A stretch of 43,754 bases of DNA from Aromatoleum toluolicum (lineage in GTDB: Bacteria > Pseudomonadota > Gammaproteobacteria > Burkholderiales > Rhodocyclaceae). A model generated the notes under the pieces. That model ran no database searches. It was not told where the DNA came from and was given only the letters and a program-made list of their open reading frames with translations. Positions 6,121 to 10,216 of this stretch are shown here, piece by piece. The position numbers were made by a program, and so were the translations under genes. Numbering within the stretch: the first letter of the stretch is position 1; the number at the start of each line of letters is the position of its first letter. The stretch is from positions 1 to 43,754 of the forward strand of contig NZ_WTVS01000050.1 in the NCBI RefSeq assembly GCF_012911005.2, in the 5' to 3' direction.

Positions 6121-7941
6121 TCAGACGACGGGATGTGCGACGACCTTGTTCTTGCCCGCCTGCTTCGCTCGGTACATCGCCTCGTCCGCGCGCTGCACGG
6201 TGCTTTCCACCGTGTCGTCGGGGTTCCATTCGGTGACGCCGGCGCTGAACGTTATCAGCACTTTCCGCTCGTGCGTGAGGAAGAAGTTGCGCGTGAGTTC
6301 GCGCTGCAGGCGCACCAGGGCGGCCTGCGCCTGTTCGAGCGTGGTGTCCGGGTAGAGCAGGATGAATTCCTCGCCGCCGTGGCGGGAGACGGTGTCCTGC
6401 GGGCGCAGGCTCTGCCGGATGATCGTGGCGAGGTGGACGAGGGCGTCGTCGCCGGTGCGGTGGCCGAAGGTGTCGTTGAGCTGCTTGAAGTTGTCGAGGT
6501 CGAGCAGGGCGAGGCTCAGGGGGCTGCCGTGGCGGCGGGCGCGGGCGGCTTCCTTGTCGAAGGTCTCTTCCAGCCCGCGGCGGTTGAGCACGCCGGTGAG
6601 CTGGTCGTGGCGCATCAGGCGGCTGGCTTCGTCGAGTTGGCGTTGCAGCTCGTTCATGCGTTCTTCGGCGTCGCGGGCGCGTTCGCGTGTGGCGTCCAGT
6701 TCGTCGCGGGAGCGCCGGGCGGCGTCGCGCATCGCGAGCGTTTCGCGCATCACTTCGCCGAGGACTCCGCTGATCTCGGTGATGTCGCGCGCGGTGGAGA
6801 TGCGGTCGGCGCAGTTGCCGATGCGGTCGTGGTAGGCGCCGGTGGTTTCGGCGAAGCTGGCGAGGTGGTCGACGAAGCCGGCGAGCAGCTCCTTGAGCGA
6901 GCGCTGGGCTTCGGAGTGGTTGTGCTTGAGCTGGCTCTGCTTGTAGATGATCTCGCGCAGCCGGCGTTCGGCGTCGTCGATGAGGCGCACGTTTGCCGGT
7001 TTGCCGAGGACGTCGCGCAGGACCTCGATCTGGCCGCTGAGCCAGCTGTCGTCCACGACGATCTGGTCGATGTTGTCGAGCAGCAGGCGCAGCAGGTTGA
7101 GCAGTCCGGCGTTGATCTCGGCCCGGTCACCCGCGACCATCTCGAGCCGGTAGGCGAACTTGCGCATGCGCGTGGCGATGTTGCGCAGATCGTCCGCGTT
7201 GCCGGCGGTCTTGACCGATCCGGCGAGCCTGTCGGCTTCCTGCGCCAGTTCGGGCTGTTCGGTGAGCAGCGGTGGGAGCACCGTTTCGAGCGCGAGTTGC
7301 AGCAGTTCCTGGCGTGCGGCGAGCAGTTCGCCGGCTTCTCCGGGTGCGACCTGGCGCATTTCGGGTGCTGCGCCGGCAGGGGGCGTGGGGGCGCTGGCGG
7401 ACGGCGCGTTCGCTGGTGCGTTTGCGGCGTCGGATGGTTCGCGGGGTGCCGGCGCTTCGGGATCGACCGGAGCCTGCGTCCACGAGCGGACGAGGGCCTG
7501 CAGACGGGCGTGCAGCGTTGCGGGATCGTTGGCCGCGAGCACGCGTTCGAGCGATTCGCGCTTGCGTGCCGTGGTCCAGCCGAGCTGGCGTGCTTCCCAC
7601 TGCCTGAGCAGGTTGGCGATCAGTTCGTTCCAGGCGGGCGGCTGCTCGGTCTTCAGGCTGGCAAGGTAGTCGGTCAGCGCCTGCCGGCTGGTGTCCTGGT
7701 TGTTGTCCGCCAGAGCCTGGTCCAGCTGGCGGGCGATCCGCGCGCGTTCGGCGGTGTCGCGGGGCAATTGCCGCGCGAGGGCGCGCACGAACTTGTCGGG
7801 GAAGGCGCCTTCGGCGTCAGGCGCGCCCGCGACCTCGTAGTAGAGGGCGCGAAAGTTGTCCGGTGTCGGCGAGATGCGCCGTGCCGCGAACAGACGCAGG
7901 ACTTCGCGGGCAATTTCCGATGGCTGGGTTGGGGCGGGCAT
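6121..7941 (-). CDS. Diguanylate cyclase (GGDEF domain) with long helical N-terminal region
   Basis: A 606-residue cytoplasmic protein. The C-terminal part (about 440-600) is a GGDEF domain with an intact GGEEF signature at about 522-526, so it probably makes c-di-GMP from two GTP. RPQD, five residues before the signature, is an intact inhibitory I-site (RxxD), indicating product feedback. The first 430 residues have no membrane segment or clear sensor domain: an N-terminal module (EIAREVLRLFAARRISPTPDNF), an Ala/Pro linker near 180-230, and long coiled-coil-like helices just before the GGDEF domain (ARDAEERMNELQRQLDEASR). It lies next to the flagellar genes, so it may feed motility control, although the local brake gene ycgR is broken. 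Confidence 0.88.
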   Translation of the reverse strand: MPAPTQPSEIAREVLRLFAARRISPTPDNFRALYYEVAGAPDAEGAFPDKFVRALARQLPRDTAERARIARQLDQALADNNQDTSRQALTDYLASLKTEQPPAWNELIANLLRQWEARQLGWTTARKRESLERVLAANDPATLHARLQALVRSWTQAPVDPEAPAPREPSDAANAPANAPSASAPTPPAGAAPEMRQVAPGEAGELLAARQELLQLALETVLPPLLTEQPELAQEADRLAGSVKTAGNADDLRNIATRMRKFAYRLEMVAGDRAEINAGLLNLLRLLLDNIDQIVVDDSWLSGQIEVLRDVLGKPANVRLIDDAERRLREIIYKQSQLKHNHSEAQRSLKELLAGFVDHLASFAETTGAYHDRIGNCADRISTARDITEISGVLGEVMRETLAMRDAARRSRDELDATRERARDAEERMNELQRQLDEASRLMRHDQLTGVLNRRGLEETFDKEAARARRHGSPLSLALLDLDNFKQLNDTFGHRTGDDALVHLATIIRQSLRPQDTVSRHGGEEFILLYPDTTLEQAQAALVRLQRELTRNFFLTHERKVLITFSAGVTEWNPDDTVESTVQRADEAMYRAKQAGKNKVVAHPVV

Positions 7942-8088: not shown

Positions 8089-8250
8089 TCAGTGCTCTTC
8101 TGCGGCGCTGCGAGCCTGCATGCGCATGAACCACACTGCGAAGATCGTTGCCGCCGCGAGGGTCGTCGCCTCGACGACGTGACCGGTGCCGAGCATCAGG
8201 CCGGACGCGCCGCCGCAGCCCATCAGCAGTCGATTGATCCACTGTTCCAT
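8089..8250 (-). CDS. Small predicted membrane protein (53 aa) with SOS-type promoter
   Basis: The ATG at 8250 is preferred because GGAG lies 8 bases before it; the longer open frame upstream has no ribosome site and crosses the promoter. The 53-residue product starts MEQWINRLLMGCGGASG, has a Gly-rich first half, then one hydrophobic segment (about residues 25-44: VVEATTLAAATIFAVWFM) followed by a charged tail ending EEH. That suggests a single-span inner-membrane peptide. A LexA-box-like palindrome covers the -10 element 50 bases upstream, so expression is probably induced by DNA damage. I do not recognise the family. By analogy, SOS-induced small membrane peptides such as TisB act on membrane potential, but nothing in this sequence proves that role. 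Confidence 0.6.
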   Translation of the reverse strand: MEQWINRLLMGCGGASGLMLGTGHVVEATTLAAATIFAVWFMRMQARSAAEEH

Positions 8251-8299
8251 ATTGGTCTCCGTCGGGAAGAGAGCCCTCTGCGGGGCCGTGTTGGTCGAG

Positions 8300-8336
8300 T
8301 GCTGTAAGTATATACAGTATTCGGCTCCGGCTGCAA
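8300..8336 (-). promoter_or_regulatory. Promoter with LexA (SOS) box upstream of the 53-aa gene
   Basis: Bases 8300-8319 read TGCTGTAAGTATATACAGTA on the plus strand. This is CTG-N10-CAG with an AT-rich centre and flanks close to the LexA consensus TACTG(TA)5CAGTA. On the minus strand TATACT (8307-8312) inside the box can act as -10, with TTGCAG (8331-8336) as -35 at 18 bases. LexA bound here would block the promoter. The plus strand has no gene to serve downstream. Confidence 0.7.
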
Positions 8337-8384: not shown

Positions 8385-8411
8385 AGAAAAAGGGGCGCCG
8401 AAGCGCCCCTT
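8385..8411 (-). terminator. Intrinsic terminator of the aceE-aceF-lpdA operon
   Basis: On the minus strand AAGGGGCGC, a TTCG tetraloop and GCGCCCCTT form a perfect 9-pair stem followed by a T-rich run. It begins 20 bases after the lpdA stop codon. Confidence 0.9.
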
Positions 8412-8431: not shown

Positions 8432-10216
8432 TTATTTCTTCCGCGGTGCCGGCACGTCGGTGCAGCTGCCGTGTGCGACCTCCGCCGCCATGCCGACGGT
8501 TTCGCCCAGCGTCGGGTGCGGGTGGATGGTCTTGCCGATATCCACTGCGTCCGCGCCCATCTCGATGGCGAGGCACACTTCGCCGATCATGTCGCCGGCC
8601 GAGGGGCCGACGATCGCGCCGCCGATCACGCGGTGCGTTTCGGCGTCGAAGATCAGCTTGGTGAAGCCGTAGTCGGCGCCGTTGGCGATCGCGCGCCCCG
8701 AAGCGGCCCACGGGAACCTGGCGGTCTCGACTTTGCGGCCTTCCTTCTTCGCCTGCTCTTCGGTGTAACCGACCCATGCCACTTCCGGATGGGTGTAGGC
8801 CACGCCCGGGATCACGGTGGCGTCGAACGCGGACTTCTCACCGGCTGCGACTTCCGCCGCGACGTGCGCTTCATGCACCGCTTTGTGGGCGAGCATCGGG
8901 TTGCCGACGATGTCGCCGATGGCGAAGATGTGCGGCACGTTGGTGCGCATCTGCGCATCGACCGGAATGAAGCCGCGGTCGGTGACGACGACGCCCGCCT
9001 TGTCGGCAGCGATCTTCTTGCCGTTGGGGCTGCGGCCGGCGGCCTGCAGGATCATGTCGTAGCGCTGCGGGCCTTGCGGAGCCTTCTCGCCTTCGAAGGT
9101 GACCCACAGGCCGTCGTCCTTCGCCTCGACGGCGACGGTCTTGGTCTTCAGCATGACGCTGTCGAAGCGGTGGGCGTTCTGCTTCTCCCACACCTTGACG
9201 GCGTCGCGGTCCGGGCCTTGCATCAGGGCGTCGAGCATCTCGACGACATCGACACGGGTGCCGAGCGTCGAATACACCGTCGCCATCTCGAGGCCGATGA
9301 TGCCGCCGCCGATGACGAGCATCTTCGCCGGCACCTGACGGAGTTCCAGCGCGCCGGTCGAATCGACGATGCGCGGGTCGCGCGGGATGAAGGGCAGGTG
9401 CACCGCGGCCGAACCGGCGGCGATGATGCACTGCTTGAACTTGATGACCTTCTTCTCGCCGGTCTTGTCCTGCGCGTCGCCGCTGGTGACTTCGACTTCG
9501 ACGTGGTTCGGGTCGAGGAAGCTGCCGTAGCCGCGCACGACGTCGACCTTGCGGCCCTTGGCCATGCCGGCGAGACCGCCGGTGAGCTTGCCGACGACCT
9601 TGTCCTTGTGGGCGCGCAGCGCGTCGATGTCGACGGTGGGCTTGGCGAAGGTGATGCCGGCGGCGGACATGTGCTCCGCCTCGTCCATCACCGCGGCGAC
9701 GTGCAGCAGCGCCTTCGACGGGATGCAGCCGACGTTCAGGCACACGCCGCCGAGCGTCGCGTAACGCTCGACGATGACGGTCTTGAGACCGAGGTCGGCG
9801 GAGCGGAATGCGGCGGAGTAGCCGCCCGGGCCGGCGCCGAGCACGAGCATGTCGCACTCGATGTCGGCACCGCCGGCGTGGCTCGACGCGGCCGGGGCCG
9901 CGACGGGCGCGGCAGCCGGTGCCGCGGGGGCGGCGGCCGGAGCCGGAGCGGCTGCGGGTGCAGCCGCGGCAGCAGCGCCCGCCGCTTCAACCTTCAGCAG
10001 CACCGCGCCTTCACCGACTTTGTCGCCGACCTTCACCAGGACTTCGGTGACGACGCCCGCGGCCGACGACGGCACGTCCATCGTCGCCTTGTCCGATTCG
10101 AGCGTGCAGATCGCGTCGTCCACCTTGATGGTGTCGCCGGCCTTCACGAACAATTCGATGATGGGGACGGACTCGAAATCGCCGATGTCCGGAACCTTGA
10201 CTTCAACTTGGCTCAT
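8432..10216 (-). CDS. lpdA: Dihydrolipoamide dehydrogenase (E3) with N-terminal lipoyl domain
   Basis: A 594-residue flavoprotein that reoxidises dihydrolipoamide of the pyruvate dehydrogenase complex and passes electrons to NAD+. Residues 1-78 are a biotinyl/lipoyl domain with the lipoylated lysine in ESDKATMDVPS (Lys43). An Ala/Pro linker (about 79-115) follows. The FAD-binding motif GAGPGG is at 127-132, the redox-active disulfide in GGVCLNVGCIPSK is Cys159/Cys164, and the C-terminal HPHPTLGE segment provides the His-Glu pair. Ordinary E3 proteins have about 470 residues; the extra lipoyl domain is known from some beta- and gammaproteobacterial complexes. The gene ends the operon, 12 bases after aceF and followed by a terminator. 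Confidence 0.95.
   Translation of the reverse strand: MSQVEVKVPDIGDFESVPIIELFVKAGDTIKVDDAICTLESDKATMDVPSSAAGVVTEVLVKVGDKVGEGAVLLKVEAAGAAAAAAPAAAPAPAAAPAAPAAAPVAAPAASSHAGGADIECDMLVLGAGPGGYSAAFRSADLGLKTVIVERYATLGGVCLNVGCIPSKALLHVAAVMDEAEHMSAAGITFAKPTVDIDALRAHKDKVVGKLTGGLAGMAKGRKVDVVRGYGSFLDPNHVEVEVTSGDAQDKTGEKKVIKFKQCIIAAGSAAVHLPFIPRDPRIVDSTGALELRQVPAKMLVIGGGIIGLEMATVYSTLGTRVDVVEMLDALMQGPDRDAVKVWEKQNAHRFDSVMLKTKTVAVEAKDDGLWVTFEGEKAPQGPQRYDMILQAAGRSPNGKKIAADKAGVVVTDRGFIPVDAQMRTNVPHIFAIGDIVGNPMLAHKAVHEAHVAAEVAAGEKSAFDATVIPGVAYTHPEVAWVGYTEEQAKKEGRKVETARFPWAASGRAIANGADYGFTKLIFDAETHRVIGGAIVGPSAGDMIGEVCLAIEMGADAVDIGKTIHPHPTLGETVGMAAEVAHGSCTDVPAPRKK

What the first reader, a model, noticed from the sequence alone, without database searches (positions are those of the whole stretch)
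8089..8336. SOS-controlled 53-residue membrane protein
A LexA-box-like palindrome (TGCTGTAAGTATATACAGTA) sits on the -10 of a promoter 50 bases before a small gene with a good ribosome site and one hydrophobic segment. SOS-induced small membrane peptides are a recognised functional class (TisB is the known example), but I do not recognise this sequence. It may be a new DNA-damage-induced membrane-active peptide or stress modulator in Rhodocyclales.
Basis: partly seen in the sequence, partly recalled or inferred. Interest (0 to 1): 0.72.

Follow-up and report, generated by a model that had tools for sequence, protein, structure and literature searches.

The report
DNA-damage-controlled small membrane hairpin protein
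A 53-residue, probably membrane-bound protein in Aromatoleum-type bacteria has an unusually good binding site for the DNA-damage repressor LexA on its promoter, and relatives found in other genera nearly all have such a site too, which points to an undescribed protein made when DNA is damaged, perhaps to pause division or alter the membrane.

Summary
The 53-codon gene (8089-8250, minus) and LexA box (8300-8319) are where stated. The box is the only site in the 6.16-Mb genome within 3 mismatches of the E. coli consensus. On a matrix from lexA promoters of the same bacterial family it scores 27.8 bits; the own lexA box scores 26.3 and the next site in the window 6.8. Protein searches that ignored DNA found homologues in 59 of 395 family genomes, 9 of 68 genera. 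Upstream of 58 of the 59, the best site beats all 2267 control windows; 55 of 59 also beat all 1180 shuffled upstreams. The gene is under purifying selection (dN/dS 0.22) and its neighbours differ between genera. The protein does not look like a one-helix TisB peptide: conservation and AlphaFold2 suggest a two-helix hairpin with a small-residue ladder. No convincing Pfam, NCBIfam, PHROGs, PDB, phage or plasmid relative was found. Most likely an SOS-induced membrane effector that engages a membrane partner, perhaps the late divisome. Regulation is well supported by comparison; function is inferred.

The parts
8089..8250 (-). 53-aa small, probably membrane, protein gene (stop codon 8089-8091)
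   Evidence: homologues in 59 of 395 family genomes; dN/dS 0.22 over the first 48 codons of 11 same-genus genes, differences by codon position 358/243/938
8257..8260 (-). Shine-Dalgarno GGAG
   Evidence: GGAGACC invariant in 11 of 11 same-genus loci aligned
8300..8319 (-). LexA box TACTGTATATACTTACAGCA
   Evidence: 17 of 20 to the E. coli consensus (recalled), unique in genome at <=3 mismatches; 27.8 bits on lexA-promoter matrix; conserved in homologues
8307..8312 (-). -10-like TATACT inside the LexA box
   Evidence: read; TATACT in 10 of 11 aligned same-genus loci, TATAAT in the other, L021
8331..8336 (-). -35-like TTGCAG
   Evidence: read; TTGC in 11 of 11 aligned same-genus loci; a TTG at box -17..-15 or -10 in 46 of 59 homologues
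8390..8411 (-). terminator-like hairpin after the dihydrolipoamide dehydrogenase-like gene, separating the small gene from the upstream gene

Best explanation
A stand-alone SOS gene. In undamaged cells LexA covers the -10 region and keeps it off (inferred from the box). After DNA damage, RecA-stimulated LexA cleavage frees the promoter, and a protein of about 46-58 residues goes to the inner membrane as a helical hairpin. Its first helix carries an invariant small-residue ladder (G13, G17, G/A21) and its second a matching one (A/G28, mostly small at 32 and 35), ending at a nearly invariant Arg43. I think most likely that the hairpin docks in the membrane against a specific membrane protein and slows a membrane process while DNA is repaired, the best candidate being the late divisome (FtsW/FtsI/FtsN), as small SOS membrane proteins of other bacteria do. 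Shown by comparison: the gene, its selection, the box and its conservation. Predicted: the hairpin. Inferred: membrane site, induction, target.
For: Box: (58 of 59 above all 2267 control windows by matrix; 55 of 59 at >=14/20 by consensus against 0 of 2267 windows and 2 of 1180 shuffles). Same motif before lexA, imuA-like and dnaE2-like genes of the family. All 13 carriers among the 81 genomes have lexA, and same-genus G011 lacks both. Coding. Hairpin: pLDDT 81; diverged member, pLDDT 80. Small residues (G/A/S) in 59 of 59 at positions 13, 17, 21 and 28, R43 in 58 of 59. Context varies while gene plus box persist. The own genome has no PF03846 (SulA) match, and the best eight matches in the family, of 99 genomes with one, read as 209-262-aa ImuA-like frames. 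Literature: small membrane division inhibitors are called more widespread (PMC13396833, Discussion part 1 of 2 read); SidA binds FtsW (PMC4211646, passages read).
Against: No experiment, no expression data, no interaction data. 336 of 395 family genomes have no detected copy, so it is not a checkpoint of the whole family. A strict CTG-N10-CAG lies within 150 nt of only 48 of 59; the rest have altered half-sites. Five of 1180 shuffled upstreams exceed 12.8 bits, the highest 17.1. Known division inhibitors SidA, YneA and DidA have other architectures. How these genes are annotated in public records was not checked. The AlphaFold2 models have pTM about 0.5 from 9 sequences and do not prove membrane insertion; in the window protein helix 1 is only mildly hydrophobic. 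The target is argued by analogy.
Confidence: 0.45

Rival explanations
1. SOS-induced membrane depolariser or pore former that works like TisB or DinQ: the hairpin oligomerises and dissipates the proton motive force, giving dormancy under damage.
For: Same regulation and size class; glycine-zipper hairpins can oligomerise (recalled); weak, probably compositional resemblance to V-type ATPase subunit K in 9 of 33 members, best E 5.1e-5.
Against: TisB pores rest on a charged amphipathic face (PMC8309996 passages); 43 of 59 members have no charge in positions 9-41. No conserved block upstream of the -35 in 11 same-genus loci that could be an antisense RNA gene, only two weak Rfam matches, far below gathering scores and over the lpd end, leader only about 45-50 nt (inferred).
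Confidence: 0.2
2. SOS-regulated membrane protein that adjusts respiration, transport or envelope state, or scaffolds a repair or nucleoid complex, without stopping division.
For: A helix hairpin with small-residue faces could be an accessory subunit of many membrane complexes (inference).
Against: No conserved neighbour that names a complex in the loci examined.
Confidence: 0.25
3. The gene belongs functionally with the downstream diguanylate cyclase-like gene (6121-7941), linking DNA damage to c-di-GMP.
For: Codirectional in the window; a gene with a similar N-terminus lies 0.64-0.82 kb downstream in four g48 loci (L065, L096, L098, L103).
Against: In those four an opposite-strand gene lies between them, and in the g27, g57 and g67 loci examined the neighbours differ. 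A TATAAT before the cyclase gene in 6 of 11 same-genus alignments suggests it has its own promoter.
Confidence: 0.05
4. Chance: a palindrome beside a spurious ORF.
For: The loose pattern CTGT-N8-ACAG is not rare: at least one match in 26 of 100 window shuffles, 21 sites in the genome against 30 for the reversed control.
Confidence: 0.01

Closest known systems
TisB (E. coli type I toxin)
   Same: LexA-controlled small inner-membrane protein (here the membrane site is predicted)
   Different: 29 aa, one amphipathic charged helix, IstR-1 antisense RNA (PMC8309996 passages); here about 53 aa, two predicted helices, core mostly uncharged, no antisense RNA gene seen
DinQ (E. coli)
   Same: LexA-controlled inner-membrane peptide
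   Different: 27 aa, single helix, AgrB antisense RNA (PMC3567139 abstract, PMC8309996 passages); sequences not aligned here
SidA (Caulobacter)
   Same: SOS-induced small inner-membrane protein; proposed mode of action here
   Different: 29 aa, interacts with FtsW (PMC4211646 passages); no target known here
YneA (Bacillus) and SosA (Staphylococcus)
   Same: SOS-induced small division inhibitors; YneA membrane-bound
   Different: YneA is one helix plus an extracellular LysM domain (PMC13396833 abstract); here no extra domain. SosA seen only in a search listing
SulA (PF03846)
   Same: possible role
   Different: SulA binds FtsZ (PMC13396833); no family match here

Membership tests
LexA (SOS) regulon gene | LexA box of the organism's own motif at the promoter | tested here: met
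   27.8 bits against 26.3 for own lexA on a matrix from 12 family lexA boxes, one of the 12 being the own lexA box; unique in genome at <=3 mismatches
LexA (SOS) regulon gene | box conserved upstream of orthologues | tested here: met
   58 of 59 above the maximum (12.8) of 2267 control windows, L078 at 11.9; strict CTG-N10-CAG in 48 of 59
LexA (SOS) regulon gene | induced by DNA damage, derepressed without LexA | not testable with these tools
   needs RNA measurement
TisB/DinQ-type type I toxin | single short helix, with a charged amphipathic face in TisB | tested here: not met
   predicted two helices; 43 of 59 with no charge in positions 9-41
TisB/DinQ-type type I toxin | antisense RNA antitoxin | tested here: inconclusive
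   no conserved block upstream of the -35, no Rfam match near its gathering score; trans-encoded RNAs cannot be excluded
TisB/DinQ-type type I toxin | toxicity by depolarisation | not testable with these tools
   bench assay
SOS membrane division inhibitors (SidA/YneA class) | SOS-controlled small membrane protein | tested here: inconclusive
   LexA box met; membrane hairpin only predicted
SOS membrane division inhibitors (SidA/YneA class) | blocks division through FtsW/FtsI/FtsN | not testable with these tools
   no interaction tool or data
SulA (PF03846) | sequence match to SulA family | tested here: not met
   no Pfam match for the window protein; PF03846 not among the 5 families weakly matched by 33 members
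Any curated protein family | match over cut-off | tested here: not met
   no match for the window protein; 33 members give only weak matches, best 0.0022 (Pfam) and 5.1e-5 (NF004888, V-type ATPase K), cut-offs not printed in those tables; PHROGs none for 3 proteins

The most novel reading that the evidence does not exclude
An undescribed, lineage-restricted SOS effector family: a glycine-ladder two-helix hairpin, under the genome's closest match to the LexA consensus, that blocks septal wall synthesis from within the membrane, a checkpoint that arose independently of SulA, SidA and YneA.
Probability: 0.35. Interest if true: 0.75.

Novelty: new variant of a known kind. Interest (0 to 1): 0.6.

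Why it matters
How bacteria without SulA hold division during DNA repair is largely open, and PMC13396833 argues that small membrane proteins are the commoner solution. A compact family with a clear LexA box in nine genera gives a direct test case in bacteria for which my searches listed little SOS work (one integron-integrase survey, PMC3108266, that mentions Azoarcus, seen in the listing only). Its regulation can be checked with one RNA experiment. If it is instead a pore former, it would be a damage-induced dormancy factor of a new architecture.

Tried and rejected
Chance palindrome: rejected. Antisense-RNA toxin anatomy: looked for, not seen. Phage or plasmid origin: no match in plasmids, phages or viral contigs (34 pattern hits, none confirmed). 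Wider spread: order scan gave 3 of 399, of which only G528 (E 7.3e-4, inside a 636-aa frame) is outside the family and is probably false; class scan gave 1 of 369, the own genome. These searches scored only about 17 first-look candidates per genome, so distant members may be missed. Photosynthetic reaction-centre L hits by sequence profile (E about 1e-3, 24 positions) were judged compositional. Foldseek in PDB: best E 4. SulA replacement by counting PF03846: 99 of 395 family genomes match, own genome not; the eight fetched loci are ImuA-like, the others were not opened, so no exclusion pattern could be drawn. recA promoter as yardstick: failed, own recA has no box (3.1 bits).

Results against: the four weakest boxes by consensus are L083, L090, L089 and L102 (11-13 of 20). 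Strict CTG-N10-CAG is missing within 150 nt of 11 of 59: L064, L078, L080, L083, L084, L086, L087, L088, L091, L092, L097. Of 14 family lexA loci, three showed no CTG-N10-CAG and one was not parsed; 16 lexA loci of other families were handled but not used in the matrix. Most control windows are probably coding and GC-rich, so the shuffled upstreams are the fairer control for composition: 5 of 1180 exceed 12.8 bits, the highest 17.1; 55 of 59 homologues exceed that. One of 30 recA loci (L179) was not parsed. A first count of 48 loci with TTG at the two fixed distances counted two loci twice; one search gives 46.

Full report
Observation. The gene at 8089-8250 on the minus strand encodes MEQWINRLLMGCGGASGLMLGTGHVVEATTLAAATIFAVWFMRMQARSAAEEH. 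GGAG lies 6 nt before the ATG. On the minus strand the 20-mer TACTGTATATACTTACAGCA (8300-8319) overlaps TATACT, which lies 18 nt from TTGCAG. Upstream is a dihydrolipoamide dehydrogenase-like gene (8432-10216, my recognition of the translation) with a terminator-like hairpin after it (8411-8390), so the small gene probably has its own promoter. Downstream is a GGDEF-type gene (6121-7941). The strict sigma-70 scan listed no promoter, so the promoter call rests on reading and on conservation.

Is the box more than chance? The loose half-site pattern is not informative: 21 sites in the genome against 30 for the reversed control. The full E. coli consensus (recalled) with up to 3 mismatches is informative: it occurs once in 6.16 Mb, here, control 0. 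The genome has one LexA match (PF01726). Its lexA promoter holds AGCTGTTTAAAATTACAGTT, and good sites also precede a DnaE2-like and an integron-integrase-like reading frame (both recognised by me).

Independent motif. I took lexA loci from relatives (64 of 81 genomes match; 30 loci fetched, 14 of them in the same family). Ten of these 14 showed a CTG-N10-CAG box before lexA, three none, one was not parsed. With the own lexA box and one more family lexA box (L121) these made a 12-site matrix. Scores: window site 27.8 bits, DnaE2-like 28.5, own lexA 26.3, integrase-like 23.9; next best in the window 6.8. A scan of 16 family genomes without a detected copy found ACTGTATA-N5-ACAG in 7 of 16, 12 sites in all. 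Three of the 12 stand before lexA (L117, L118, L121), one before an imuA-like gene (L120) and one before a dnaE2-like gene (L122); the others were not all assigned. So this is the LexA motif of the family.

Orthologues. Protein search found 15 of 150 relatives and, with a profile, 59 of 395 family genomes, 9 of 68 genera, including 12 of 17 genomes of the own genus. The genus is Aromatoleum by record titles of near-identical loci. Searching used protein only, so the box is an independent test. The best match in 150 nt upstream is >=14 of 20 in 55 of 59, against 0 of 2267 control windows of the same loci and 2 of 1180 shuffles. By the lexA matrix 58 of 59 exceed the control-window maximum of 12.8. 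Shuffled upstreams reach at most 17.1, with 5 of 1180 above 12.8, and 55 of 59 homologues exceed 17.1. A strict CTG-N10-CAG is present in 48 of 59. The box ends 21-104 nt before the start codon, and 54 of 59 have a GGAG/GAGG/AGGA/AAGG. A TTG lies at one of two fixed distances (box -17 to -15, or -10) in 46 of 59, which suggests that the box covers the core promoter in two arrangements. In 11 of the 12 same-genus loci, which I aligned, the TTGC, the box and GGAGACC stay while flanks drift. The twelfth, G010, was left out of that alignment: it has a weaker, different box (L102: 13 of 20, 19.3 bits).

Selection and context. dN/dS over the first 48 codons of the 11 same-genus genes is 0.22, with differences at codon positions 358/243/938. 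Neighbours change between genera (34 loci printed). In nine of twelve g48 loci printed, an opposite-strand gene that I read as ProQ/FinO-like ends 9-30 nt away, convergent with the small gene; in L093 (g67) and L077 (g27) a CreA-like gene (my reading) does so. In the window the gene sits between lpd and the GGDEF-type gene. Gene plus box therefore look like a unit. All 13 carriers among the 81 genomes have lexA; G011 of the own genus lacks both.

Protein. Lengths are 46-58 aa in 56 of 59. G/A/S occupies positions 13, 17, 21 and 28 in 59 of 59; Arg43 is in 58 of 59 and Trp40 in 46 of 59. Forty-three of 59 have no charge in positions 9-41; 10 of 12 same-genus members have Glu27. AlphaFold2 gives helices 3-22 and 25-52 for the window protein (pLDDT 81.3, pTM 0.49) and the same for a 42%-identical MAG protein (pLDDT 80.0, pTM 0.50). 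Hydropathy is moderate in the window protein and higher in most other members computed (8 members). With R7 and R43 flanking, both ends inside is the likely topology (inference).

Known families. Pfam, NCBIfam, PHROGs: no convincing match. PDB sequence and fold searches: nothing convincing. Phages, plasmids, viral contigs: none. Outside the family: nothing convincing in 399 order and 369 class genomes. Literature searches for SOS control in these bacteria or for such a family listed no description; that library holds open-licence papers only, and the lists (20 of 1,406; 10 of 180; 10 of 16) were cut. PMC3323433 (passages) reports two beta-proteobacterial LexA-linked hypothetical genes, hypA and hypB, said to be limited to multi-chromosome species or to Burkholderia, so by that distribution different from this family; their sequences were not compared.

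Mechanism. Regulation by LexA is about as well supported as comparison allows. For function I favour a partner-binding membrane effector, with the late divisome as first candidate. The small-residue ladders suggest specific helix packing, the charged face of TisB is missing in most members, no antitoxin RNA is seen, and small membrane division inhibitors are the commoner SOS solution according to PMC13396833 (Discussion part 1 of 2). This last step is an argument by analogy.

Noticed in passing
L116 (G007) and L126 (G052), after the box at about position 1500: 66-68-aa zinc-ribbon-like proteins (two CPxC-type pairs) start 15-17 nt after an ACTGTATA-N5-ACAG LexA box in two genera: a second candidate small SOS family.
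   Followed up: no
L032 and L158-L187: recA has no LexA box in the own genome (3.1 bits), and a site above 12.8 bits in only 5 of the other 29 recA upstream regions read.
   Followed up: partly
L013 (G000 C212:9530-9545): An integron-integrase-like frame with a good LexA box TACTGTACTTATGAACAGTA at its start.
   Followed up: no
L124 (G021 C1:1016565-1016581): A LexA-like box 28 nt before a frame that I read as MraZ-like, the first gene of division clusters.
   Followed up: no
L119 (G023): 56-aa different small ORF 37 nt after a LexA box in a genome without a detected copy of this family.
   Followed up: no
L064, L086, L087, L091, L097 (genus g57): Box with an altered right half (ACAC instead of ACAG) in five of six g57 homologues, perhaps a shifted LexA specificity in that genus.
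   Followed up: no
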